In this document: positions 35,004-63,191 of the stretch, one piece after another
How the letters are laid out: each line of letters opens with the position of its first letter
Position numbering within the stretch: the stretch's first letter is position 1
From: Vishniacozyma victoriae
Taxonomy: Eukaryota; Basidiomycota; Tremellomycetes; Tremellales; Bulleribasidiaceae
Reading direction: 5' to 3'
DNA: 64,000 nt
NCBI GenBank assembly: GCA_017654735.1
Contig: JADPYG010000088.1
Coordinates: forward strand, 1,302,001 to 1,366,000
Notes under the pieces: model-generated
Told to the model about the DNA's origin: nothing
Databases searched by the model: none
The model's input: only the letters and a program-made list of their open reading frames with translations
Translations under genes and position numbers: made by a program

Positions 35004-38000
35004 ATGATCCGCGGGTTTGCAACTTCGAGCGATACCCTAAATTCACCTTCAACCCCAACTTCATCCAACATGTTTACATTTGGTCATTCATTCTCTTCTT
35101 TTCCATATACAATGTCATTATTCTCGGAAGCGTTATTGGCTTTCCTCAATACTGGGACCGTCAGTGATGAGGATGCGACTAGTGTTCTTGAGGAGTATGC
35201 TTGGTCTAGTATCGTTTCTGGGAAAAGGGTTAGGGAGTACTGCGAAGACTTGACTGAGATTATTTCAAAAGTGAGCAATCCCCTTCCAAAAGATAATTAG
35301 CTAATGATCAGCTCAACAAGCCAAGTGCTGTGCAGAGGCTACTTTATACTGGTGTCCTCGCTACCCTCTTTCCCTTTATTCGAGTCACATCAACTTACCT
35401 CCCATCACCACCTCCACTACCCGCTCCCATCGTTACTCCCAGCCACCTACCCAGCATTACCCGAAAACAGTTGATCGACGCCCTATCAAAATTTTCAACA
35501 TCATCACTTCAATCACTCTATACCGAAGGCTTAATCTTCGAGGTCATCGTCGAGTACATTGGCAAGAGATGGAGGTCTGGAGAGTCTGACATAGTGGAAA
35601 ATATCGCTAGGAAGTTGACAGAGGTCGAGTTCGAGGTACGTCCCCTTTTCAAGAATGGAGCTGATGATAGATCCAAGTCCAGGGTGACCTGTCGACCGTC
35701 AAGACTACTATCCAACCCGCACTTCAGAAAGCTCGATACCTACTCGGTTTTCTATCCGTTACTCAGCTCGTCGTCCGACTCAACGCCATGTCGGGTACTT
35801 CCCTTCCCAAATCCGATCGAGTTCGACCCCATCCAGACCGTCTCATCAGGTCATACATCATTCGAAGATTGGCGGCTGGTAATGATCCCACTCTTGTCAT
35901 CTACGATTTAGTAGCAGCTCAAGACAAGATCAATTCGGCAAGTCATAAAGACATCCTCATCTCCACTATCGCTTCATTCGGTCTCAAAGCCGAATCACCA
36001 ACCCCCAACGATTTCGGTCGTGGATCTACCGATACTCTCATAGCTCCTACTTCACCTACCACCTCATTCGGTCCTACCATCTCTCCTCGCCGAGCTACCT
36101 TCTCGAAGCTAGCGAGTAAACTTACTACAAAACGACATATCCCACCAGCTCCAAAATGGTTATCCCACCGAAAAGCCAGTATGTCGGTCTCGAGGCTTCA
36201 CCTACCCGACTTCAATACCGATCGAAGACCATCACTACCCACTTTACCCTGCGTTCAAGCTAGCCCGACATTCAAACCTGTAAAATCACCTCTCGCCATG
36301 GCATCCATGTCGTCGGTCCATACCATTCGACGAATCATTCCAGAAGAAAGTCCAGAGTGGCAGGGACCAGATGACTTGACCGTCCGGATCTTATCAATGC
36401 GATACAGGGTGACAAGGGATGGAGGATGGTTCCTTGGTCCAGGGAAAGAATCAGCTCGAAGATTGTTGAGATCTTCTCTGCACTACTCCGAGGATGTCCA
36501 GGCTGTACACGACATTTCCGCTCTATTCGACATCATCCTTTTCCCTACACCTCCGCCTGTTCCTCGACCCGTCACTTCACCCGGCGAAGGCGTCATTGGT
36601 GGTCGAAGGGGATCAAGTCCAGTCAATTGGCTACCTCTCGCACCATGCTTGGTCCCTCTATCACTTGGACACGACCCCGATCCAATGTCACCACTATCCA
36701 TCGCTTCCTTTGATCTCGACGAGTATTACGCTCGAATGAGTTCTGGTCGATCATCTCATGCGGCCAAGTTGTCAATGGGTACCATGACTACGGATCTTGA
36801 TTTCATGTCGTCCGATCCGCATGCTCAAGATACTTCGCCTGATGCTAAAAGTCGAAAGAGGCGTAGTGCGGGTCTGGAATCGCTCATGACCATGAACACT
36901 GGGTTCACTGGTTATACATATGGACGAGCATCTCGACTAAGCAACTACTCGATCCGGGAAGCTACCACAGAATGGACATCCACCGCTATGGCTACTACGA
37001 TCAGTATGCCTCATCTACCTAAATCCACCTTGGGCGAGGGCGAGATCGACCTAGACCCACCATCAGATGATGATGATAAGGATCCGAGACCGACTCATCG
37101 ACACTCCCGCTCCCGATCCGAGACGGATTTGCTGGCGATGATCAGGCCTGACCCATCGTCCCCACCTCTCACGAATCGATTCATATCACTTCGAAGGACG
37201 AGGCGAATTGATTCTCGAGCCGTACTTCCTCTATCCGCTTGGGACCTGGGTCTAGGTCACCTCGTGCCCACCTCCCCTACCCCTCTTCCACGATTCAATC
37301 ATCAACCTCCATCCGATGACATGCATTATAGTATGACTGATCGATCGCTCCTTGTCGGCATGCCCCCGCCCTCGCCTCCAGTCTCGCCAACCTCCTTGAA
37401 TTTCAACACTCCTCGAGCTGGCGCTTTCCCGCTACCTCCCGATGATCTACCATATAGCCCAGGCCGCGATGAGGATGGAACGTACATACCCAAACCACAC
37501 GCTCATCGACAATATACTATTATCAACGGAGAAGTTTCGCCATCGAGGTGTAGTGAGGATAGTCAGGATTACTTTGGCATTCCTCCCATCGTACCCGATG
37601 GAAACTCCTTACGGCCTGTCTCAACCGGTCGTCCAGATTTCACCCGCCCAATGTCATCGATACACCCACACCGAGAAAAGGCACTCCCGATCCCGCCCCG
37701 CACTTCTTCCTTACATAGGGGTAGAACATCTCACTCCGCTCGCCCTCTGTCTTCCGGTCCGGAATCACCACTCTCCCTAGCGTTCTCACTTTTCACTTTT
37801 GGCCGAGCCCCTCCACCGCCCGAAGCTCCTGCTGGGCACCCGGGGTATGAAATTGTGGCTGCTCGGGCTGATTTGACGGTCGATGAGATCAATGTGGTAC
37901 TGGATGGTATAGTTGTTTCTGAGAAGGCGAGGATCAAATCGAGGGGTAAGAACTGGGACGATGCTGCGAGGTGTAGGATTGGGTGGTTGATGGATCAAGT

Positions 38001-38505
38001 TGGGGACATGGTGAGCTAGCGTCTTCTGTTCAGGGCGGTCGTAGCTGATGTTTAGTTGAACGACTCCCGCTTCGCTCCCATTATCGATGTTCGCCTTGAT
38101 CGCCTCGCCCCACCCTCACTCAGGACTGGAATGCTCAACCCACCCAGTCCGATGGGCTCGTCGCCGGGTTCCATGAGATCGTCCAGTTCCACCCAATCTA
38201 GAGATCACCTGTACCCCTCATCGCCTCTAACGAATCTCCACGGTCATTCCACTCTTTCTCTGCCTTCCGACGAACCACCTGTTAAAGCTCAAACAAGCTC
38301 GAGGCCGCCACTTAGGAAACTTGCCCCTCCTATGCCGATTTCGGAGGAGTCGAGAGTGAACGAAGCGAAGGTGATACCGCTTACACCTACCCGGGAAGCA
38401 CCTCAACGACCATTGCCCAGGGCGCCTAGGAGGGATATGGGGAGTCAGGATAGTACCGATTCTATGTTGACGGCCAAGTTGTCTATTGGGACTTTTGGGC
38501 ATTGA
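35004..38505 (+). CDS. large Ser/Pro-rich protein of unknown function
   Basis: I do not recognise this protein. Four exons join in frame to about 1,120 residues. The first 250 residues are hydrophobic-helical and look folded (LFSEALLAFLNTGTVSDEDA, then LLGFLSVTQLVVRLNAM), possibly a helical repeat domain. The rest is largely disordered, rich in Pro, Ser, Arg and Thr, with many SP/TP sites and short acidic runs, so it could be a phosphorylated scaffold. A conserved-looking helical segment lies near the end (ADLTVDEINVVLDGIVVSEK). The final intron joins GDM to LNDSRFAPIIDV. The start could instead be a later Met such as MFTFGHSF or MSLFSEAL. Confidence 0.7.
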
Positions 38506-39099: not shown

Positions 39100-39598
39100 T
39101 TACTCCTTGCCCGCAAAGTTTTCCTGTGCCATTGCCAAATTCACGCCAGGGATTTGCTCGGGCTTCTGCTTAAAGCCAAACTCATTCTCTGATCCTTCTT
39201 TCTTGCCGACAACGACATCCTGGTGCATGACCGTGGGATCATCACCAGCGCCAGTGAGGAGCATATAGATCTAGTAATCAGCAGATATACAGTATCTATG
39301 GAAATCAAAAGGTGAGATGACTCACGTCAACAGACCATTTGTCATTGTCAATGTGGAAACTCTGATTCATATTCAAGTCGGTGTAGACAAAGCTTCCAAT
39401 GACACTGTGGATGGTGTTGTCGTAGACGTGTCTGATGGCTGCGTCATTGAATGAGATGGGGGCTTGATCGGGGATGTCACGCTTGACCACGGACATTGAT
39501 GGATCTTGGGTAACAAGATTGATTGTGAAGTTCTTGTTGAGGCTCTGGGCCGAAACAAAGCTTGCGGAGAAGAGGGCTAGAAGGGAGAGGTACTTCAT
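39100..39598 (-). CDS. array gene 1: small secreted protein of an unrecognised family
   Basis: Two exons (39326-39598 and 39100-39270, 55-nt phase-0 intron), 147 residues. Signal peptide MKYLSLLALFSASFVSAQ, then LNKNFTINLVTQDPSMSVV, SVIGSFVYTDLNMNQSFHID and NDKWSVD at the splice site. Exon 2 reads IYMLLTGAGDDPTVMHQDVV, GKKEG, then QIPGVNLAMAQ. N-glycosylation sites at NFT and NQS, a possible Kex2 site (KR) before DIPDQ, no cysteine, no GPI signal. The alternating pattern suggests a small beta-sandwich, an inference. Function unknown. It is closest to array gene 2, with which it also shares flanks. Confidence 0.85.
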
Positions 39599-40319
39599 GT
39601 TGATAGTCTTGGTTGTATATTGCTAGAAGGCAACTTTTTTGGTGTTCTTCCTTGTTGGCTGATCTTGTTTATATTCGGGATAAGAGTAACAGACGTGCAT
39701 CCTTATATATGCTAGACCCAGCCATGGGAGATCGCCAAGAGTATCAGTGGAGTGTGTCTACCGTTCATTAGATCAGCATTGTTAACGGAGTGATTACAGT
39801 AATGGCAATGATTTGCACAGGATCAGCCAGTGTAGGCAACCAGATTGTGAAGGATATCAAGCGCCAATCCGTCTTCCTTTGGGGCGATATGCACGCCCAG
39901 CCGGTGATCATTGGGAACAAAGTATCTGGTGGCGATCATGAATTAGTTAACTCGGTATTGGGCACAGATTGAACAAGGGGAAAATAGCATGATTTAGAGG
40001 ATCGACGCTGAGGTGCGTGGATAGCGTCTTGTTTCCTGTTGAATTCGCAGATTGGCGTAGATCAAACAGGGACAGACTGACGAAAGCCGGAAATGACGGA
40101 TAATCTATAACGATGAATGGACGTACAAGGGGAGTGTGCTTTCTGGATTAGCTGTATAAATGACGAAGTGTTGCGTTTGGAGATTCCAAGAGCAACTTCA
40201 GATCTACATGACACGCACCATACCGTCATTCATTTCAATCAACCCACTCAAGCTAATACTGCACTCTATCTATCTCCTAATCGTCCTATAGCTAATACTA
40301 CTGTACAATAAGAACGCAT
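39599..40319. other. array spacer 1-2, duplicated flank sequence
   Basis: Contains the gene 1 promoter, with TATA box at 39702-39711 and the GATCAGCATTG block at 39771, and the 3' flank of gene 2. Both halves match the equivalent flanks of the neighbouring units. No other gene seen. Confidence 0.6.
39702..39711 (-). promoter_or_regulatory. TATA box of array gene 1
   Basis: Reads CATATATAAG on the minus strand, 104-113 bp before the start codon. The same element sits at nearly the same distance in array genes 2 and 3. Confidence 0.65.
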
Positions 40320-40823
40320 TTACTTAGGCGTCTTATCTACTCTGTTATCCTGGGGCATGACTAAGTTCACGCCAGGGATCTGCGACGGCATCTGACCAAA
40401 GGCGAACTCAGTTGGTGTCTTTTTGTCCTTTCCAACAACAACATCCTGTGACATCACAGTATTGTCGTCACCAGCTTTGGCAAGGGACATGTTGATCTGA
40501 TGGTCAGTAGGTGCTACGTCCACAGCAGCAGTCTTGGGAGGACTCACATCAACAGACCATAGATCATTGTCGATGTGGAAAGTCTGACCGATGTTCAACT
40601 CGGTAAAGTTGAAGGATCCAACGATGCTGTAGGTGACACCATCGTAGTCGGTTCTACCAATTGGGTCATTGTAACTGATAGGGGCTTGGTCTTCCGACGG
40701 AGGGAGTTTTGCGATTGACGTGTACTGGTCGTCGGTGAGGAGATTGATGGTGAAGTTCTTGTTGAGGCTCTGGGCCAAAGCAACAGATGCCAAGGCGAGG
40801 GCTAGAACGGAGAAGTACTTCAT
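40320..40823 (-). CDS. array gene 2: small secreted protein
   Basis: Exons 40548-40823 and 40320-40496 with a 51-nt phase-0 intron that happens to be open in frame; 150 residues after splicing. Signal peptide MKYFSVLALALASVALAQ, then LNKNFTINLLTDDQYTSIAK, YSIVGSFNFTELNIGQTFHI, NDLWSVD, and exon 2 INMSLAKAGDDNTVMSQDVV, GKDKK, QIPGVNLVMPQDN. No cysteine. N-glycosylation sites at NFT (twice) and NMS. The most similar relative in the window is array gene 1. If the intron were retained, the product would be 17 residues longer with the same frame, so both forms are possible. Confidence 0.87.
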   Translation of the reverse strand: MKYFSVLALALASVALAQSLNKNFTINLLTDDQYTSIAKLPPSEDQAPISYNDPIGRTDYDGVTYSIVGSFNFTELNIGQTFHIDNDLWSVDVSPPKTAAVDVAPTDHQINMSLAKAGDDNTVMSQDVVVGKDKKTPTEFAFGQMPSQIPGVNLVMPQDNRVDKTPK

Positions 40824-41597
40824 ATTGGCGGTTTTGGGTAGTTTGTTTTAGAGCAGTAAGCTGGTAACTTGGCTGGTATGCTTTCTTGTAGGCTGGATTT
40901 GTTTGATTGGAATAAGAGTGAGCAATGTGCTTGCTTATATATGCCAATACGGGGATGGGCTATCGGCAACAGCATCAGTGAAGCGTGACTACCCTCAATC
41001 AGATCAGCATTGTCAATATATTGATTGCGGTAGATGGAGCCACTTGCATTGAATCGGCGGTTATATCTGACCAGATTGTGATTGATTTTAGGCGTCGATC
41101 CCATCGACTGGCAACAGCCGATGGCCTTCCTTTGTGCTTGACTCAGATTGAACAAAGGGAAATGGCAGGATCTTCAAGATCGACGGCAATGACTGTGGAT
41201 CATCCCCATCGGTTTCGGTGTCGAGTTTTGTGCTTTTGATCAGACTTGCGGATTGATGTATATCAAATAGAGATGGAGTCATGAACGACAAAAATGACTG
41301 ATGAATGCCGAAATGATGGGCTCAGATTGGAATCGTGAACATCATAGGGTGTCTCAGAACTACTTCCGTATACAGGAAGTGCCATCCATCTAGCGAGCCG
41401 GGACAGGAGGATATCTGTGCAAGGCTTGAGATTCGCATGGCCTAACACGTTACAAGTGGCCAATGACCCGGGCGTTCAGTGTACACATGCTCCTTCCAAT
41501 CGCGAAACGCTTCTTGCCCGTTACATCATCAAGGTAGCTCACATAGTCGATACATCTGCACTCGCAACTTGTACATCTGATCTGACTTTAAGATCTG
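40824..41597. other. array spacer 2-3
   Basis: Contains the gene 2 promoter, homologous to that of gene 1 over several hundred bases (for example the AGATTGAACAA block near 41149 and its match near 39968), and the 3' flank of gene 3. No other gene supported. Confidence 0.6.
40934..40943 (-). promoter_or_regulatory. TATA box of array gene 2
   Basis: CATATATAAG on the minus strand, 111-120 bp before the start codon, followed upstream by the AGATCAGCATTG block at 41001. Confidence 0.65.
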
Positions 41598-42121
41598 CTA
41601 CTCCACATAGGCCGCTCCCTCGACTTTCTTGCTCATCGGGTTCCCCGCGGTACTAGTGACATTGACCCCAACAAGGTCTGCGCTCACCATATCAAATCTC
41701 AAAAACCCTCCGTCGGTGTGGTTGGCGGCAATGGTCAAATCAAGATGTTTCACGTCCCCAATGCTCTGGACGCTACAAGTGACCTGCCTGTAAGCATTTT
41801 GACTGGACACTTCCACTATCAGGGAGCCGAACTTACTTCGGAAGCCCATCGATCGGAATCGAGATGGTAAGTCTGGTTCTTGTCGGTCTCGGTGAAAGTC
41901 AAGCTTCCAATGACACTATAGAGAGAATTGTCGTTTCCATAAACATGTTTGATAGCGGCGTTGTTGAAATGAATGGGCATCTGGTAGGGGAGGACATCAG
42001 GGAATGAGATGGAATAGTCTTCAACTTTGGTGAGGAGGTTGACTGTGAAGTTTCGACCGAGGTCTGCGGCTGATACAGCCGAAGCAAAGATTACTGCGAG
42101 GAAGGATGCTGAGTACTTCAT
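41598..42121 (-). CDS. array gene 3: small secreted protein
   Basis: Exons 41837-42121 and 41598-41783; 156 residues. The splice uses donor GTAAGT and the second of two close acceptors (ACAGGCAG); the first would bring an early stop. Signal peptide MKYSASFLAVIFASAVSAAD, then LGRNFTVNLLTKVEDYSISF, SVIGSLTFTETDKNQTYHLD, SDRWASE, exon 2 VTCSVQSIGDVKHLDLTIAA, FLRFDMVSADLVGVNVT and end GAAYVE. One cysteine. Several N-glycosylation sites (NFT, NQT, NHT). Its promoter keeps the TATA box and GATCAGCA block of genes 1 and 2. Confidence 0.85.
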
Positions 42122-42878
42122 CTTGTTGGATATTGTAATGAACGTGGGTAACTTATAGTAAAGTGGCAAATTGATTGATATTGTTTGTTGTATTCTTATT
42201 GGGGATAGAGGCCCGGATTGTGCATGCTTATATACCCTTACCATGTCACCAGATACTGGTCGGATCAGCACTGCTGTGTAACTACCTTTCTACAGACAGC
42301 CGTTACAATCACTGACCTGGCGGGGAGATTGATCAATCTGCAATGGATCTGCGGTTACCACCTTTGACCAGATCCGAGATCACCTCACCAGCAGATCGTG
42401 ACTCCATTAAACGAAGACTCCTGATGCGGGCATGCCAGTTAGGGTCAGACCAATCCTTAACAGTTTGTAACAGCATCCCTTGATACTGGGCACAGATTGA
42501 TGAGGGGGGATAGGGAGATTGCCCTTGGGACTGGCCACATCCATTTGGTGCGATTCGCCGGGATCTTATCCTCCTTTTGATCCAGTCTCCTGTTTCGCCA
42601 ATATCAGTGAGGGGTAGACCAATGATTGCGACAGACGAATGTCGGATACTAGGATGGCGGCAATCATCTTAATCTCCCCTGTCTCCTGTCAGGGGTCTCT
42701 GAGTCACGACAGATATTGTCGATTTGCAGAAACTGTCCGAAATGATGGTCGATGGAAAGGGTCGCAAATGCTGAGGTATTCGTCCCTTCTCAAGCCTCCA
42801 TAGAGTTCACACCTGGCTCAAAACGCTACAATACATACGTCAAGACTATCAATCTACGAAATCATTAGGCTATAACTA
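42122..42878. other. array spacer 3-4
   Basis: Contains the gene 3 promoter and the 3' flank of gene 4. A GGGCACAGATTGA block near 42488 matches the flank of gene 1 near 39960. No further gene seen. Confidence 0.55.
42227..42236 (-). promoter_or_regulatory. TATA box of array gene 3
   Basis: GTATATAAG on the minus strand, about 106-115 bp before the start codon. The GGATCAGCACTG block lies upstream at 42262. Confidence 0.6.
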
Positions 42879-43374
42879 TCAAGGCTTGGGAGTGATCTCT
42901 GTTGGGACATTGGACACATCCACACCGTCAAAGTTTGGGGTGAGGTAATCGAACCTCATGCCTGCTCCATGGGGTTCCTCCTTGGAGACAGCAATGTCAA
43001 CATGTGATAGCTGCCCCCGTTCACGGAGCTCCATCGAGATCTTTTTGTCAGCGGAAGTTCAGACACCATGTTAAGGTGAGAGGGAAACTCACATTAGCGC
43101 TCCATTGGTTGTTGTCAATGAGGTACCATTGAGGTACTCGCTCTTCCTGAAAGGTTGCACTTCCAATGACACTCCAAGTCACGTTTGTCTCGTAGATTTG
43201 GTGCTCGGTAGCATTTGTGCAGGAAATTGGGATTGTGCCGCCGGGGGAGATAATGGACATATCTTCTACTTTGGTGAGGAGATTGACGGTGAACGGAGGA
43301 GCAGGTTCAGGAGCTTGTGGTGACATGGCTCGGCTGACCGACAAGAGGGTGAGTATTGCGGCGAAGTAGTTCAT
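42879..43374 (-). CDS. array gene 4: small secreted protein
   Basis: Exons 43093-43374 and 42879-43040; 147 residues. Signal peptide MNYFAAILTLLSVSRAMS, a short Pro-rich spacer, then PPFTVNLLTKVEDMSIISPG, TWSVIGSATFQEERVPQWYL, IDNNQWSAN at the splice site, exon 2 ISMELRERGQLSHVDIAVSK, GMRFDYLTPNFDGVDVS, end TPKP. One cysteine. NVT and NAT sites. The TVNLLTKVED block matches gene 3 exactly; exon 2 also resembles gene 3 (LRFD/MRFD). No TATATAAG element at the position seen in genes 1-3. Confidence 0.83.
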
Positions 43375-43889
43375 CTTATGTATATCTTCCCTGAGAGCGG
43401 AATTACGAGGCAGTAGTCAATGTAAAACAAGGTTGCTTGTTGGAAAAGAGTCGAGACGCATTGGTCTGTGATATGGTACGGGCGGATCCATTCTTGTACT
43501 TCGGTCGGATTCGCGTTGATCATCGATCTTCCTTTCATGGATCATCGTGTACAATGGATCACCTTACCAAGCAGGGGTTCTGACGCAGGGGTGAAAAGTG
43601 ATCGCCGTGGCTTGGCGATCATTCTGATATTCCGGTGGCGATGTAGGCTTTCCTTTGTGCTCAGATGGAGGCAGGCGATGCATAGTCCCTTCTGTTCCTC
43701 AATTTGCAGTCCAGAGCATTACGGGGCAGAAGAGACTGAGGATAGTCATGATGATGGTGTGCTCGCTGTACTACGGTACTGCATGAAGCATTCCCAGAAG
43801 CTGCGGCCAATGGCTGCAGTGTTGGACTCATTCGATTGGCGGTTGTGTATTCAGCTACTGCACGAGGTACATGCCGGGTCACATTAACA
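43375..43889. other. array spacer 4-5
   Basis: Contains the gene 4 promoter. A CTTTCCTTTGTGCTCAGAT block near 43651 resembles the flank of gene 2 near 41127. A plus-strand open frame at 43468-43887 has no recognisable content. Confidence 0.5.
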
Positions 43890-44075
43890 TTACTGAACCT
43901 GCACATCCACCATATTGACCTCCAAGGCAAAATCATTCGGTAGCCCGACTTTTGTCCAACCCATGATCAACTCCAAATCGTTCAATTTAGCCGCCGGCTC
44001 CTTGTATGTGATCCCCACGTCTGCCTCCCTTACCCAATCGCTCAAAATAAACCCACTCCCTGCACTCCTGACCAT
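43890..44075 (-). pseudogene. orphan copy of an array second exon
   Basis: Just 15 bp beyond the stop of array gene 5, the same strand encodes VREADVGITYKEPAAKLNDL, ELIMGWTKVGLPNDFALEV and the end NMVDVQVQ with its own stop. This aligns with exon 2 of gene 5 (VREADAEIVF, then QWATEVPAEFDAPVTVV) and gene 6 (LKEADAAIQY, GWATDVPPNFLVPIDL). No signal peptide exon belongs to it. I found no acceptor that would keep the phase-0 frame, so it looks like a relic of a lost gene copy or a duplicated exon, rather than a working alternative exon. Confidence 0.6.
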
Positions 44076-44090
44076 TACCGCGTTACTGAA

Positions 44091-44588
44091 TTATCCCTCG
44101 TGATACGCTGGATCTGACCAGGGACGAAACACCACTGTGACCGGCGCGTCGAACTCAGCCGGGACCTCGGTCGCCCATTGAGCGAGGATATAGGTCTGAT
44201 CATTCGGCTGATTCTCCGCCAAGAAAACAATCTCTGCGTCCGCTTCCCTAACTCCAGCAGGATCTTTGACTTCGATGATCATCTGTATCCCATCAGCGTA
44301 TGTCTCACTATTATGTATAGTACGTACATCACTGAAGATACCCCCGAACCTGACCTTTCGACTTTGAGGAATATCGGTCTCGCTGAAAGTCATTTGGGCG
44401 ACCACACTAAGCGTTTCATTGTGATGGTCGTGCTTCTCAAAAGCGGTACTGTAACTGATGTTTGTGCCGTCAGGGGGGGTCATCGACAGGTCTTTGATGG
44501 AAGTGATGAGATTGACCTTGAAGTCGTAGCCAATAGGCTCCGCTACAATAGCTGGAAAGAGAGCAGCGAGTAGGGTAAGGTAAATCAT
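44091..44588 (-). CDS. array gene 5: small secreted protein
   Basis: Exons 44328-44588 (261 nt) and 44091-44282, with a 45-nt phase-0 intron open in frame; 150 residues. Signal peptide MIYLTLLAALFPAIVAEP, then IGYDFKVNLITSIKDLSMTP, TLSVVAQMTFSETDIPQSRK, FGGIFSD at the splice, exon 2 MIIEVKDPAGVREADAEIVF, LAQWATEVPAEFDAPVTVVF. No cysteine. It forms a subgroup with gene 6 (GYxF start and EAD...WATxVP in exon 2). The open frame continues upstream to 44720, but the Met at 44588 begins the signal peptide and aligns with the paralogues. A TATA-like GTATAAAG lies about 55 bp upstream. Confidence 0.85.
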   Translation of the reverse strand: MIYLTLLAALFPAIVAEPIGYDFKVNLITSIKDLSMTPPDGTNISYSTAFEKHDHHNETLSVVAQMTFSETDIPQSRKVRFGGIFSDVRTIHNSETYADGIQMIIEVKDPAGVREADAEIVFLAENQPNDQTYILAQWATEVPAEFDAPVTVVFRPWSDPAYHEG

Positions 44589-45125
44589 GGTAGATGATGC
44601 TTGTGGAGTATATTGACGTTGACTGATGATGTGAGAGCTCTTTATACCTCCAGTACATTGCTCAAAGCTGTGCAAAGGGATCTGAGGCCGAAGGGGCCAA
44701 AGGAGAGCTAAGTTGCACACTCAACGATTGGCCCCACCTTGTTTCATCTTTGTCTCGTTTCACACTAGTAAGCAAAGGCCATCCCTGCGCGAAGATGTGT
44801 ACCGGAGCTCGTAAAGAAGGGGTAATTCCCATACTCTGCTCTGCCTTGGCAGTCCCGGTGACCGTTCACAAGCCAAAGCCAAAGTCGGAGTGACATCATC
44901 ATGTCGAGAACTGCGATGTCTAGATCCCTTTCACGTTTCAAAGGAGGCCATTGAAGGTCTAGTAACTCAACATTGACCACGATGATCCATAAGAGCATCG
45001 TCAATAACGGCAGATCAGAGGATAGCTACGTTCATGACTCTGCTGACTATGGATACCGTGGCGAGAACGAGTCGACTTCATAGTACACGCTAGACAGCTT
45101 CCACCATTTCCCTTCCATCTGGTCC
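44589..45125. other. array spacer 5-6
   Basis: Promoter of gene 5 and 3' flank of gene 6. An open frame at 44765-45004 on the minus strand shows no family resemblance. Confidence 0.5.
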
Positions 45126-45592
45126 TTATAGGATGCGGGGTGTCAAGTCGATCGGTACCAAGAAGTTGGGCGGAACATCAGTGGCCCAGCCGAACTGTAC
45201 CGTCGTGTTGCCGACGTTTATGTATTGGATCGCGGCGTCCGCCTCCTTTAATCCTGCGGTATCTATGACCTCCAGATTGACCTACAGCTCATCAGCAAGC
45301 TTTCTTCCGCTCCAGACAGGAATCACGTACATCATAGGTATTCTTGCCAAATTCGACTTTGTATGTTTGCGGAACACCGGTTTCGGTGAATATCATGAAT
45401 CCCACGACGTTGAGGGTTTCTGTCTCGTGCTCATGAATGTCCAATGGGAAGTCATGGGTGATGGTCGTGCCGCTGGGGGTAGTCATGGCCAAAACGGAGA
45501 TTGAGGTTATAAGGTTGACTCCGGAAGTTGTAACCTATGGGTGTGGCGAGGACTGTGGGTAGAAGAGCCACGAGGAGGGTGAGGTACTTCAT
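45126..45592 (-). pseudogene. array gene 6: small secreted protein with a frameshift in exon 1
   Basis: Exon 1 would be 45331-45592 (262 nt, one more than the 261 of gene 5) and exon 2 45126-45281. Signal peptide MKYLTLLVALLPTVLATP and IGYNFR are in one frame; the rest of exon 1 (VNLITSISVLAMTTPSGTTI, TLNVVGFMIFTETGVPQTYK, FGKNTYD) is in the next frame, after one extra base near 45526-45530. Exon 2 is intact: VNLEVIDTAGLKEADAAIQY, FGWATDVPPNFLVPIDLTPR. As read, translation from the signal peptide stops about 50 residues in. No ordinary intron repairs it. It is either a recent pseudogene or a one-base sequence error. Confidence 0.75.
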
Positions 45593-46117
45593 TTGGTCAA
45601 ACTTTTCGAGAGTAGGGTGTCGATGACCGGTTCTGACTTGTGGAAAATTGCTTTTGACCTTGTTTCCTGGTAGAGCTTATGTACTTTAAGGACAAGCGTT
45701 CGAAAGGGAAAGTTTGGGGAGATGCCACTTTCAATGATCGTCTCTATCTAATTCCATGTCCAGCTGTAAGCAGCGATCTCTTGATCCCTCCTGTAAGGTA
45801 TACCGTACAGTTAGGATGATCAAAGGAGTAAAGTCTTGGCACCTCACCTTGGGACCTTTGCCCCGTGAATCTTCCCTGTCTCCGCTCCGGGCGTCCTTGC
45901 ATTGTTTCCCACAGAGATTGGTAGCCTTTCGCAATTGGAAGGAGGCCGTTGATCGGCGTCCTCCTGAGCTCGGTGTCTGAGTATCTTTGTCTACATCAGA
46001 GGACCAATGTGGGGCGAGGCGATAAAGTTTTGCATGACGAAATCCCCACTTCGCCCGAGATATCCACCATCACACCCCCTAGTACATTCCCCGTCCCTAC
46101 CATTCCCAGCCACCAAT
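45593..46117. other. array spacer 6-7
   Basis: Promoter of gene 6 and 3' flank of gene 7; no further gene seen. Confidence 0.5.
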
Positions 46118-46565
46118 TTAACCGAATCGACAATCGATAGTGACAGCCTTCGAGTCAACTTGAGCGTTCTTGTTGACAGCCCTCAGCTCGCCGACGATAG
46201 ACTTGGGGGTAGGTCCATCTCGAAGAACGAGATTTGCGGCGTCGACTTTGGCGTCCTTGACAAGGTTGACGGTACACTAGTAATCAGTCTTTCCTTCTGG
46301 TGTACTCAAGTGAAGAGTTCAAACTTACCCAGGCGGTCGCTTGACCATTGTTCAACGCAATCATAGTCTCCCCAGGCTGAGCGAGAGTCAATGATCCATA
46401 CACTTTCAAATCCCCCTTATCGTCGGACAACTTGACTCCTGCGACGCTGTTGTCGTCGGCAAAGTTGATGAAGTAACCAGTCTCATGCGATGATACGTAG
46501 AGAGTCAAGGTCTTGGCGAGGGTGAGGGGAGCGAGGGCGAGAGCTAGCAAGGAAGGGGTCTTCAT
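46118..46565 (-). CDS. array gene 7: small secreted protein, most divergent member
   Basis: Exons 46329-46565 and 46118-46276; 131 residues. Signal peptide MKTPSLLALALAPLTLAK, then TLTLYVSSHETGYFINFADD, LKVYGSLTLAQPGETMIALN, NGQATAW at the splice, exon 2 CTVNLVKDAKVDAANLVLRD, VDSKAVTIDCRFG. Only the layout and the block YGSLTL...ALNNGQATAW (compare IGSFVYT...IDNDKWSVD in gene 1) link it to the others, so common origin is likely but not certain. It is the only member with two cysteines and it lacks the NFTINL motif. A TATATAG-like element lies about 55 bp upstream. Confidence 0.8.
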
Positions 46566-51844: not shown

Positions 51845-54800
51845 ATGAGCGTCACCCCACCAAAAAGTAAAATGTCACCGACCAATCCAACAGAGCCTGA
51901 ATCAGCGACATCCTCGCGCACCAATTCAGCTCCCGATACGCGTTCTTCCTCCCCCTCCAAGCGCCAAACCACAAACGTCCTTGGTCTCGGTCTACCTGAA
52001 TTGGCCACTCCCTCCAAGCCCATGACCATCTTGACCGAATACCCACATCTTGGTCATTACGTATATGGCCTCATAGCCAATGCCCATAATAGTCCGCCAC
52101 GAACCAACGGGCTCGGTGCGAATGGATCGGGATTACAACATCCTTTGAGTGTCTCTTCTTCCGGCGAGAGTGATGATGAGGACGAAGATGATGATGGTCA
52201 AGCCAAGAAGGATTTAACAAAGAAGAAAGAAGATTCTGGAGATCAGGTCGACAGGGATTTTGTAGTCAAGCGAATCGTTGAATTGTTGGATAATGATGAG
52301 GAAGAGGAGATTAAGGAATTGCTCAAGCCATACATGGGCGATCTCGCCAAGGTAAGTCACTTGACCCATTCGTCCTGCACAAAAACTGATCGATAGGACG
52401 ATGTCTTGATGGACCAAGTATGCTTGGACTGTATGCACAAACGACGAGGTATGTCGACCCCTTCCATCTCACCAGCACATCCAATACCCTGGTCTCATCA
52501 CATTCCGCATTGACTAATCCTCAGACGATATCGAGGGTGCACCTTACGCTCCCCACCTCACCCCTGCACGTGCCCGGGCATCTCCGTCGCTCAATGCTGG
52601 TTTCCCACTACGACCATATACCCCGACCAGAGTCCCCTCTTTCCGAGCTAGAACCCCTCTCGGACGACCTCAGTCCCCCATCATGCCACCTCCCGGATCT
52701 GGAGCTACTACGCCCATCATGCAGCGTACGATGTCTAGCTTGGGCAGGGAAGCTCTATCGATGCCTTTGTCGTCTACCGATACTGGTGCTTCCACTGCTA
52801 CTTCGCCCCCCAAGAGTCTCAGTGCGAAAGCAAATACGTTCAATCCTGCTGCCATGAGCAAAACCGCTTCGATAGCGTCTTCTGCAGCTAGCGATCCTTG
52901 GAAGGATGTTCCGTCCGACCCGATCTCACGTTCCGCTTCACCTTTCGGCGCCATCGGAGCGCATGGCATGATCAGGACGAGCTCTAATCTTGCCATTTCC
53001 AGCATCATCGATAAATCAAGTCCGTTCCATTCACCTCTTGGTACCCCTAATCGAGTCCCTATCAAGATGCCCGATGTCTTCAATTCGCCAAGCGAAGGGT
53101 CAACGTTCCATCGCAAAAGTATCGTACCCGACGACGATGACGATGATGACTTTTCACCATTTGCAAGTGGACTTCCCAAGCTACATCATCATGAACAGAC
53201 TGGGATGAACTCCGGCGCGAAACCATTCGAGCCGTCACTTGGATCTGCAGAGTCTGCCACTTCATATGGATCACACTCTCAAGACTCTGACGCTGATGGG
53301 GCCGACGAGATCGATTTCGGTAGCGGTATGACTCCACTTGATGTTCTCTCGTCAGTCTTCTCAACCGTACCACGTCCCGAGCTTGAAGATGCGCTTCATC
53401 GTGCCAACTACGACTTCGAATCCGCAATGGCAATTCTCGTATCATCGTTCAACCTCCCTCGATCAGGCGCCTCCACCCCTGGTCGGATCAGTTCTCCAAG
53501 ACCCACATTACTTGGTGTTGGGACGCGAGGTGGAGTCTCTAGTGGGCACTTTGCGCCTAGTCAGGGGTACTTTAACCAAGGCGGAAGGTCTTTCAGTGGA
53601 CACCACAGTCCTGGTCTAGGTACTAGGAGTCCGGGTGGACAGGGAACCAGGATGTGTCGGTACTTCCTGGCTGGCGAGTGTAGGCGAGCGGATTGTCGCT
53701 TTAGGTAAGCTCATCTCAATTCTCCAGTGTAGTACAATCTGACATGCAGTCACGATCTAGACCGAGCATTGTGTCGATTCTGGCTAAGAGGACATTGTGC
53801 TAAGGGACCGAACTGCGAGTGAGTAAATGGTCATCTTCAGTTGAACGGAACACTGATGCTAGATTCATGCACCACTTCCCCAACAATGTCGATCCGCATG
53901 CTTTGTCCAACGCGATGGCTCGAGTCGAGCTCTCCTCTGACGGTCGAGCTACCTCATCTGGCTTTCCAAGTCCCGCCGAAGAGTTCCCTGATCTCATGGG
54001 CAACCGTCTCGGTCGAGTCTCTCGCTTCGATCCGTCCCGTAACAGGTTCGCCAATGCTCTCAAGCGACCCACGCCAATGGTCAATCCTTCACTCCAGATT
54101 ACTGGAGCTCGTCTTGGTGCTCTACCGCAAAGCATACCTGCATCAGCTACAGAGCCAAGGGGACCCGTCTCGGCTGTACCCCGACCATCTACGCGTATCA
54201 AGCTGCGACCTCCTACTCTACTCCCAACACTTCAAACCGGTTCTTCGGCAAATGAGCAGTACATGACGACAAGAGCTACTGCGATTCGACTCGGTCATGC
54301 TCGAAACGCCTGTCTTGCTCGTGCGTCCGACGCCTGGCGTCGTGGAGATGGTGCTGCTGCCAAGCGATTCTCTCGAGAAGCGCGTTCGCTCAATGAGCGG
54401 ATGTTGACCGATAACCTCGAGGCTGCTCAGCTACTGGTCCGAGAGAGGCGAAAGGCAGCTCAACAAGCGGTTCGAGAACGTGATCCGAACTGGTCGGATG
54501 ATACTCGAGATAGAGCGGAGAGGGGTAAAGAATGTGCAGGGGGTTTCGGAGTCGTCATGGGTGTTGCTTCCGCCAGAGCCGTTCCCGGTGGAGATCGCTT
54601 GTCAGCGGACGAACGAACCGAAATCTTGTTGGATCTACATACTTTACACGGCACTGAAGGATCCGAGATCGTCAGCCAGTTCTTGACTGAATTGGAGAGG
54701 GAACGATTCAGGGGTCTAGCGTTTGTTGTGGTTGGAGAAGAGAAACATGTTGGCACGCAGGATGCGGGTCGGGGAGCGAGTAAAGTCAGATTGGGTTCGA

Positions 54801-54880
54801 GTGTCAAGCAGTGGTTGGCTGAATGGGGATATGCTTGGAGTGAGACTGGAGGTGTTATCTGTGTGGATCCTGCTAGATAG
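51845..54880 (+). CDS. CUE, CCCH zinc finger, DUF1771 and Smr domain protein (Cue2/N4BP2-like)
   Basis: Predicted RNA-binding nuclease-type protein, about 870 residues. Order: disordered Ser-rich N-terminus; an acidic region before DFVVKRIVELLDNDEEEEIK; CUE-like helix bundle TPLDVLSSVFSTVPRPELED followed by ALHRANYDFESAMAIL near the middle; two CCCH fingers, CRYFLAGECRRADCRFSH (C-x7-C-x4-C-x3-H) and CRFWLRGHCAKGPNCEFMH (C-x7-C-x5-C-x3-H), split by an intron; DUF1771 (RATAIRLGHARNACLARASD and AAAKRFSREARSLNERM); and a C-terminal Smr domain with ILLDLHTLHGTEG. Yeast Cue2 of the same Smr class cuts mRNA at stalled ribosomes. The second Smr motif (usually TGxGxHS) reads VVGEEKHVG here, so nuclease activity is uncertain. 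It is divergent from TAF10 (260 bp). Confidence 0.88.
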
Positions 54881-60911: not shown

Positions 60912-63191
60912 CTATCTGATATTCATGATAGACCCCACGGTATCATTCTTTGGCGTCCCAATCTTCTTGCCTCTCTCCAATTCAAACGCATTCCAGAACC
61001 TCAACGTCTCATCCCCAGCACCAGTGACGATAGTCTGACCATCGGGACTCATGGCGAGGTAGAGGACCCGGAAAGTGTGTCCTGCGAGTGTGGCTACTTG
61101 GGTCATGGAAGGGTATTTCCATACGTGGATTTGATTCTGGACGGGTCCGGCAGAGAATCCATGTGTTGATACGATCTCGTTGGAATTTCGGGCCCACATT
61201 AGGTTACACACCTGATATTAGTTTTACTCTCCAAGTGGAAGAAGAGCTTACTTGAGAACCAGTATCGTATTCACTAACTAGACCTCCGGTCAAACTATTC
61301 CAGAATCGAATCTTCTTATCGGCAGTACCACCTCCACTAGCAAGTAGACCCCTCTGGTGCGGACTCCAAGCAATAGCTTTAACAGCAGCTCGATGTTCGC
61401 CAAACCTCCAAGTAGGTCTGGAATCGGTTCCACCCCAAATGAAGAGCTTGTTATCGTTACCCCCACTCGCAAGTTGGAAAGTATCGGCATTCCATTTCAG
61501 ACCACAGACTTCTTGTTTATGGTGACCTGATAGTTTCCTGAAGTAATGTTCTGGAACTCGGGTATCGCGATGGAGGATGGTTCGATCTCGTGAACCGGAA
61601 GAGAGGATGTGGTTGTTCCAGGCTAAGGTACCGACTCGGCCGGTATGGCCAGACATGGTTCGGATCTTGCGACAATATTCTGCGTCCCAGATCTCGACTG
61701 ATCCACGATTTGTACCTAGTGCGATGGTCGAGCCCTATAAGTCAGTCCTCCTCTCACACATCACATAGATGGGTGTAACTCACCTTGTTGGTCCACTCGA
61801 GACCAGTGACCTCGCCTTCGTCCGGTCCCATGTCACACAGCTTGTCGACTCTGGAAGTCTGTGCACTCCAGAGGTAGACGCTATTGCTAAGTCCGACACC
61901 GAGGACGTTTGAGGATGACCAGGAAACTAAATTGAGGTAGAAATCATCCTGTCTGTCAGCTGGCGCGACCCATAGGGGCACAAAAGCTTACCGCCAATTC
62001 CGGAGCATCCAGAACCTTGAAAGGTGATCTTGCAATCTGCCTAATCCCCTTCCTCGGACTCAAAAGAACCCTCTGACTCTCATTGCCAACCGGACTAAGA
62101 TTATATTTCTCATGTCTCATATCGTCCAGATCCCCAACTCCCATAGCTCCATTCAGACCATTTGACAATGCTGATATGCGAACAGCTGAAGGTGAAGTGA
62201 AATTCAATATCCGTTTCTTGGATGGTGTAGATGGTGAAGGAACTCCGTCCGATGGAGGTGGTGAGAAAGCCGATTTCCTCCCTGCGGAATTAGGTGGTGT
62301 GATCCGCCTACTCTGACCTGACGTCAAGGCGACTTGTGATTGATGCGCTCGATAATGCGATGACGAGGGTCCAGCACCTGGAGCTCGACCATGTCCGGAT
62401 ATAGGTGTTGTGGGTGCATGCATAGGTAAAAGGGGTAAGCTGGCGGCAGGTGATAGTTGGGCATCTTCCCTTCCTCGTTCGGCGGAACTGGCCATGGCTG
62501 GAGGTGGGTAGTGATGGAGTGGTGTATGGCCTGCGGATGATACTGGGTGATTACCGGCTGGGAGGGGGATGTTGGTAGTATGAAATGTCATTGGCTTGCG
62601 GAGCTGCGCGTGGCGAGATGGGGATGGCTGAGGTCGATGAGCCGAGGTAGGTGGGCGCGGACTTGTTCTTGCTGTGGGGAACATCTCTTCTCGAAGGACA
62701 GATGTGAAGATCTGGTTCACTTCCTCTGTGACTGTTTAGCGTAGATCTACAGTACTAGACGGTCACTCACCTCGCCTGACGTCGACATCGGTGCCCTGGC
62801 CATGATTGATCTTCCGTCCAGGAGTCATGCCTCCATTCCGCTCACCCTGCTCAGGCATCAGCTGGAACGCTGCATGTGCCGAGTTCCCGCGCGTGGGTAT
62901 GAATCTACCTGTCAGCTACAGCGCAACGAGGGACATCCAGCTGACTGACCTATCGCCATAATCCCTTGCCTTCTTGCTCCGGGTCGTTGGACTGGCTGTA
63001 CGCGTAGGCATACTGATATCTCCAAATACGTCTTCCCCTTGCTTCGGAGTAGTCGGATGGCGTGGTGTGGATGTCGATGTCGAAGTAGAAGCACCCGGTG
63101 TCGTAGGATACAATAGTGTCGATGTATTGTTGTGTTGTTGTGAAGTAGAAGACTTGGCACGACGACTGAATTCAGTCTCGTATAATGCCAT
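60912..63191 (-). CDS. CDH1: APC/C activator CDH1 (Fizzy-related, WD40)
   Basis: Substrate-recruiting activator of the anaphase-promoting complex, active from late mitosis through G1. Start at 63191 (MALYETEFSRRAKSST). The C-box reads DRFIPTRGNSAHAAF and is split by an intron inside DR|F. Long Pro/Ser-rich linker with many SP/TP sites, then SPRKGIRQIARSPFKVLDAP followed by ELA, joined to DDFYLNLVSWSSSNVLGVGL. Seven WD40 blades follow (GTNRGSVEIWDAEYCRKIRT, LSSGSRDRTILHRDTR, LASGGNDNKLFIWGG and GTADKKIRFWNS among them). It ends SIMNIR, the IR tail that docks on the APC/C. FPI-style and LDAPEL motifs favour Cdh1 over Cdc20. About 640 residues. Confidence 0.93.

What the first reader, a model, noticed from the sequence alone, without database searches (positions are those of the whole stretch)
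39100..46565. Tandem array of seven small secreted proteins from an unrecognised family
Seven genes in a row, all on the minus strand, with start codons at 39598, 40823, 42121, 43374, 44588, 45592 and 46565, i.e. every 1.0-1.3 kb. Each encodes a signal peptide, a body with a shared (N/K)-F-T/K-(I/V)-N-L-(V/L/I)-T block (absent in gene 7), a SVIGS-type strand, a W-containing block at the exon end, and a second exon of about 52-63 residues. The proteins have zero to two cysteines, unlike typical fungal effector-like proteins. I recognise no domain. Local tandem growth with sequence drift suggests selection on a secreted or surface function such as host contact, mating-type or competitor interaction, or glycan binding; that part is inference.
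Basis: partly seen in the sequence, partly recalled or inferred. Interest (0 to 1): 0.9.

Follow-up and report, generated by a model that had tools for sequence, protein, structure and literature searches.

The report
Tandem secreted-protein family in a fungus
A fungal chromosome carries a row of seven small genes for exported proteins; six are clearly one undescribed family with counterparts in related organisms (one copy has a broken reading frame), the seventh is a distant cousin, and what they do outside the cell is still unknown.

Summary
The array is real. Seven two-exon genes lie head to tail on the minus strand at the stated starts, each with a signal-peptide-like N-terminus and one short intron at the same place. 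Corrections: genes 1-6 are homologous, but gene 6 has signal peptide and body in different frames; genes 5-6 lack the W block; gene 7 is at best a distant relative. No Pfam or NCBIfam model matches at its cut-off. Sixty relatives from jgi/ena/lgn sources best-match gene 1, 2, 3, 4, 5 or 7, never 6; shared contig lengths suggest they lie together there too. So this is an old, maintained set rather than recent drift. The same gene plan recurs at two other places in the held genome: four genes and two; gene 7's exon-2 start matches theirs, but wider sequence tests are marginal or negative. Two low-confidence models are all-beta without fold assignment. Best guess: soluble, non-catalytic extracellular binding proteins. 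An unclassified small-secreted-protein family: worthwhile, but of a common kind.

The parts
39100..39598 (-). g1: secreted protein, 147 aa; exon 1 39598-39326, intron 39325-39271, exon 2 39270-39100
   Evidence: profile E 3.7e-35; relatives P0012, P0021, P0023
39702..39709 (-). TATATAAG box, its first base 111 nt before the g1 ATG
40320..40823 (-). g2: secreted protein, 150 aa; exon 1 40823-40548, intron 40547-40497 (in frame, open), exon 2 40496-40320
   Evidence: in relatives such as P0003 the read-through is out of frame after the same point (by eye), which supports a real intron
40934..40941 (-). TATATAAG box, its first base 118 nt before the g2 ATG
41598..42121 (-). g3: secreted protein, 156 aa; exon 1 42121-41837, intron 41836-41784, exon 2 41783-41598
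   Evidence: relatives P0014, P0015, P0018-P0020
42227..42234 (-). TATATAAG box, its first base 113 nt before the g3 ATG
42879..43374 (-). g4: secreted protein, 147 aa; exon 1 43374-43093, intron 43092-43041, exon 2 43040-42879
   Evidence: 11 relatives
44091..44588 (-). g5: secreted protein, 150 aa; exon 1 44588-44328, intron 44327-44283 (in frame, open), exon 2 44282-44091; no W block
   Evidence: 10 relatives
45126..45592 (-). g6: broken copy most like g5; signal peptide and body in different frames; exon 1 45592-45331, intron 45330-45282, exon 2 45281-45126 (open)
   Evidence: (g5 query hits its body at 3.1e-13)
46118..46565 (-). g7: secreted protein, 131 aa, 2 cysteines in exon 2; possible distant relative; exon 1 46565-46329, intron 46328-46277, exon 2 46276-46118
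   Evidence: 20 relatives; exon-2 start matches array B in intron register, p 0.0001, but no exon-1 signal to B

Best explanation
This is one locus of an undescribed family of small exported proteins in a fungus (basidiomycete, probably tremellomycete; that placement is inferred and untested). SHOWN: six homologous two-exon genes plus a possible distant relative in tandem, one copy with a broken frame; database relatives of each intact gene; further gene sets of the same plan elsewhere in the held genome. INFERRED: each intact gene makes a soluble, all-beta domain of about 12-15 kDa (acidic and probably N-glycosylated in g1-g5) that is cleaved from its signal peptide, is not anchored, is not an enzyme, and works by binding one extracellular partner, most likely a polysaccharide or glycoprotein of the cell's own wall or capsule or of its growth surface. 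Duplication let paralogs take on different partners, and each has since been kept by purifying selection, with occasional loss (g6).
For: Signal-peptide-like N-termini, C-termini without an anchor-like tail, pI 4.3-4.9 and 2-4 N-glycosylation sequons in each of g1-g5. Near-invariant positions across 43 sequences of five paralog lineages (F24, S36, Q80 43/43; N27, T30, F73, E75 42/43). The g2-g5 lineages are older than the sampled relatives. g1/g2 dN 0.34, dS 0.95. TATATAAG boxes 111-118 nt before the ATG of g1-g3; share of C-ending codons 0.53-0.65 in the six intact genes against 0.38-0.50 in five other long ORFs. Two models are all-beta; their weak structural neighbours include starch-binding modules CBM25/26/41 among many other sandwiches.
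Confidence: 0.38

Rival explanations
1. Secreted effector-like or competitor-directed proteins that act on a host, a prey fungus or neighbouring microbes, and diversify by tandem duplication.
Against: Each intact paralog has conserved relatives; few or no cysteines; no Pfam or NCBIfam family matched at its cut-off.
Confidence: 0.25
2. Self-recognition or communication ligands (mating, colony or kin signalling), by analogy with plant SPH proteins: small secreted families with many members.
Confidence: 0.12
3. Secreted enzyme inhibitors or partners of the fungus's own extracellular enzymes.
For: Small non-catalytic beta proteins fit by size and chemistry; no direct evidence.
Against: No linkage to a hydrolase gene was established and no inhibitor family matched.
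Confidence: 0.1
4. Decaying array with little function: old duplicates drifting.
For: g6 frame broken; paralogs only 20-59% identical.
Against: Five of six family genes and g7 are open with usable splice sites; relatives 57-95% identical; g1/g2 dN/dS about 0.36; shared promoter boxes before g1-g3.
Confidence: 0.05

Closest known systems
Fungal small secreted proteins (SSPs), orphan class
   Same: Under 300 aa, signal peptide, no known domain; PMC7105643 says SSPs are 40-60% of fungal secretomes and mostly coded by orphan genes (abstract and section 5 read)
   Different: Here a defined family, with paralogs individually conserved in relatives; zero to two cysteines; same gene plan at three loci
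MAX effectors (PMC4624222, abstract and outline seen)
   Same: Small secreted proteins with very diverged sequences; beta-sandwich (only suspected here)
   Different: The MAX proteins described there share two cysteines forming a disulphide; mature g1, g2 and g5 have no cysteine; no fold match found
Plant self-incompatibility protein homologues (SPH)
   Same: Large families of small secreted proteins (PMC6439154, start of abstract in the search listing)
Starch-binding modules CBM25/26/41
   Different: No sequence match; tied with many unrelated sandwiches

Membership tests
Fungal small secreted protein (SSP) | Under 300 aa with an N-terminal signal peptide | tested here: met
   131-156 aa; hydrophobic N-terminus with A-x-A-like cut sites; no dedicated signal-peptide predictor was run
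Fungal small secreted protein (SSP) | No known domain | tested here: met
   No Pfam or NCBIfam match at the curated cut-off
MAX effectors | Two conserved cysteines forming a disulphide | tested here: not met
   Mature cysteines: g1 0, g2 0, g3 1, g4 1, g5 0; g7 has 2
MAX effectors | Six-stranded MAX beta-sandwich fold | tested here: inconclusive
   Models of pLDDT 48.7 and 56.5; no MAX structure recognised among the rows listed
Plant SPH (self-incompatibility homologues) | Sequence family match | tested here: not met
   No such family listed at E<=10 for the six intact proteins against Pfam-A; that Pfam holds an SPH family is recalled, and weak distant matches could be missed
Plant SPH (self-incompatibility homologues) | SPH fold | tested here: inconclusive
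CBM25/26/41 carbohydrate-binding modules | Sandwich fold and starch binding | tested here: inconclusive
One superfamily: array A (g1-g6), g7, array B, C2 pair | Same gene plan: signal peptide, one phase-0 intron after 79-109 codons, second exon 40-70 codons | tested here: met
   11 frame-intact models (6 here, 5 elsewhere; g6 and b2 left out as broken); GT-AG except GC-AG in b3. Caveat: splice sites outside the window were chosen by eye to fit this plan (alternatives exist), so part of the agreement is by construction
One superfamily: array A (g1-g6), g7, array B, C2 pair | Sequence homology outside the signal peptide | tested here: inconclusive
   For: g7 to B exon 2 p 0.0001; g3 (two residues out of register), g5, g6 p 0.015-0.023; B profile against g1 4 and g3 6 of 2000 shuffles. 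Against: g1, g2, g4 exon 2 p 0.11-0.26; A profile against c2b, b1, b3 no better than 10-30% of shuffles and b4 unscored; A against full B 60 of 300, g7 against B exon 1 185 of 300 shuffles as good

The most novel reading that the evidence does not exclude
The array is one locus of a fungus-restricted superfamily with its own fold: at least 13 genes at three loci in this genome, held together by an intron fixed at one point of the beta-domain rather than by cysteines or by recognisable sequence, whose paralogs are fixed, non-interchangeable recognition modules for surface glycans or partners, that is, a fungal extracellular 'binding alphabet'.
Probability: 0.18. Interest if true: 0.65.

Novelty: new member of a known kind. 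Interest (0 to 1): 0.4.

Why it matters
Most fungal small secreted proteins have no known family. Here is a family that can be defined: paralogs with individual relatives in other organisms' data, a constant intron, and possible sister arrays in the same genome. That gives a profile to find it elsewhere, gene sets to delete as blocks, and a low-cysteine secreted domain suited to expression and structure work. If the fold or ligand proved new, part of the 'dark' fungal secretome would become assignable.

Tried and rejected

hhalign of A8 against A9 gave probability 87%, E 4.3e-6, but those profiles include the signal peptides; without them it falls to E 0.0088, 4 of 300 column shuffles as good. 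I do not count as proof. The array B profile finds no window gene convincingly: best g1 at E 0.54, next a plus-strand segment at 0.93. A C11:4710152 hit (E 0.012) reads like a glycogenin-type glycosyltransferase by eye, which suggests that E about 0.01 is chance level in these genome searches.

No relatives confirmed in viral contigs (A8, A9) or genome contigs (A9). Paper searches in which I recognised no paper describing this family: (listings only, except the papers named).
Full report
WHAT IS THERE. The window is C11:1302001-1366000 of a held genome of 11.58 Mb in 17 contigs. Six of the seven are open from start to stop. The other, g6, is not: from its ATG the frame closes after 46 codons, while the part homologous to g5 is in another frame; its second exon is open.

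SIX PLUS ONE, NOT SEVEN. Protein searches of the own genome with g2, g3, g4 and g5 recover one another and g1, and g5 and g4 also g6 (3.1e-13 and 0.014), never g7 (g1 was not a query). A profile from the mature exon 1 of g1-g5 and 38 relatives, run over 1328 six-frame segments of the window, finds only the six at E<=1 (8.5e-37 to 1.5e-14). g7 finds only itself.

RELATIVES. Three protein searches gave 60 different proteins, listed from jgi, ena or lgn sources, apparently metagenomic, named 'hypothetical protein' or unnamed. By best BLASTP match they fall to g1 (4), g2 (10), g3 (5), g4 (11), g5 (10) and g7 (20), with 57-95% identity over the matched part; none to g6. A tree of 43 rows (g1-g5 plus 38 of the 40 A-type proteins; P0039 and the exon-2-only P0040 left out) puts g5, g3 and g2 in clades with their relatives (100/100, 95/92, 100/98) and g4 at 91/98. 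g1 does not group with its three relatives but sits beside the g2 clade (94/87), and P0011, best matched to g1 by BLASTP, joins the g2 side, so g1's orthology is open. Four pairs of proteins of different paralog types have contigs of identical length (3414: g2 and g1; 11202: g2 and g3; 5151: g5 and g4; 20670: g1 and g7), while 5000 simulations of 60 lengths never gave four coincidences. Contig names are not shown, so linkage in relatives is strongly suggested, not read directly. In several relatives the translation leaves the frame just after the exon-1 end (for example P0003, by eye), as expected if the intron is real and not a multiple of three there.

CONSTRAINT AND EXPRESSION HINTS. g1 against g2: dN 0.34, dS 0.95; the other pairs have dS of 1.5 or more, or none computable, and are not used. 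Kept in at least 85% of 43 sequences: F24, N27, L28, T30, S36, I49, S66, F73, E75, Q80 in g2 numbering. g1-g5 carry 2-4 sequons each, and of the ten in exon 1 eight are present in most relatives; but taken together they are kept in 64 of 78 cells (82%), no better than all exon-1 asparagines (192 of 229, 84%). Three of the window's four TATATAAG boxes (1.0 expected; 2 of 100 shuffles reach 4) lie 111-118 nt before g1, g2 and g3; g5 and g7 have TATA-like boxes nearer the ATG, g4 and g6 none by the pattern used. C-ending codon share is 0.53-0.65 in the six intact genes and 0.38-0.50 in five long ORFs of the window. These are hints, not expression data.

OTHER LOCI. From a weak match (E 0.18) I found two genes at C2:39693-40171 and 40985-41457, and from them four at about C11:4156279-4160939. 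One of these, b2, also has its signal peptide and body in different frames. The five others can be modelled with the same plan as the window genes, though I chose their splice sites by eye to fit it and alternatives exist. Their exon 2 begins with C-x-V in b1-b4 and c2b, as does g7's. Anchored at the intron, g7 scores against them with p 0.0001 by permutation; g5 and g6 give p 0.023 and 0.022, g3 p 0.015 but two residues out of register; g1, g2 and g4 do not stand out (p 0.24, 0.11, 0.26). The permutation does not preserve beta-strand patterning. Whole-profile tests are mixed: the B profile scores g1 and g3 above all but 4 and 6 of 2000 shuffles and g7 above all but 21, but g2, g4, g5 only above all but 67-97; the A profile scores c2a above all but 21, yet c2b, b1, b2 and b3 are beaten by 131-600 of 2000, b4 is not scored, and g7 is beaten by 373. 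In column-shuffle tests A against g7 is matched by 4 of 300, A against B exon 1 by 11, A against full B by 60, and g7 against B exon 1 by 185. I regard g7 with array B as likely relatives on exon 2 alone, and A with B as possible ones.

MECHANISM. Shown: export-signal-like N-termini, acidic g1-g5, no anchor-like tail, near-invariant residues, old paralogs. Inferred: soluble extracellular binding proteins without catalysis, paralogs specialised for different partners. Glycan or wall binding is my first choice because of the sandwich-like models and steady conservation, but it is a guess at about 0.38 (lowered from 0.40 after the asparagine control showed no special keeping of sequons); effector/competitor roles are next (0.25).

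NOVELTY. No family model covers it at its cut-off, and in seven paper searches I recognised nothing that describes this family (listings only, plus abstract and section 5 of PMC7105643 and abstract and outline of PMC4624222). The library lacks most subscription papers, and the protein database seems built from gene calls that ignore introns, so absence there says little about named fungi. Orphan secreted families are common in fungi, hence 'new member of a known kind' and interest 0.4.

Noticed in passing
G000 C2, L026:2660-3550 (minus strand) and L027:3668-4051 (plus): Near the C2 pair lie ORFs with dehydroquinate-synthase domains (PF01761 1.2e-15, PF24621 5e-9) and a short-chain dehydrogenase (PF00106 3e-10); possibly part of a metabolite cluster (inference).
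   Followed up: partly
L039/L040, C11:4158035-4157569: Gene b2 of the second array has its signal peptide and body in different frames, as g6 does; two of 13 genes broken between signal peptide and body is curious.
   Followed up: partly
35788-38019 (+): 743-aa ORF left of the array with no Pfam match at E<=0.01.
   Followed up: no
53819-54880 (+): ORF with a DUF1771 domain (PF08590 3.8e-16), probably of the Smr type (recalled).
   Followed up: no
61204-61656 (-): CDC20/Fizzy WD40 stretch (PF24807 1.6e-55).
   Followed up: no
46478-46437 (g7 exon 1): The stretch around GYFINFADDNSVAG resembles a beta-trefoil repeat of a designed protein; judged chance.
   Followed up: yes
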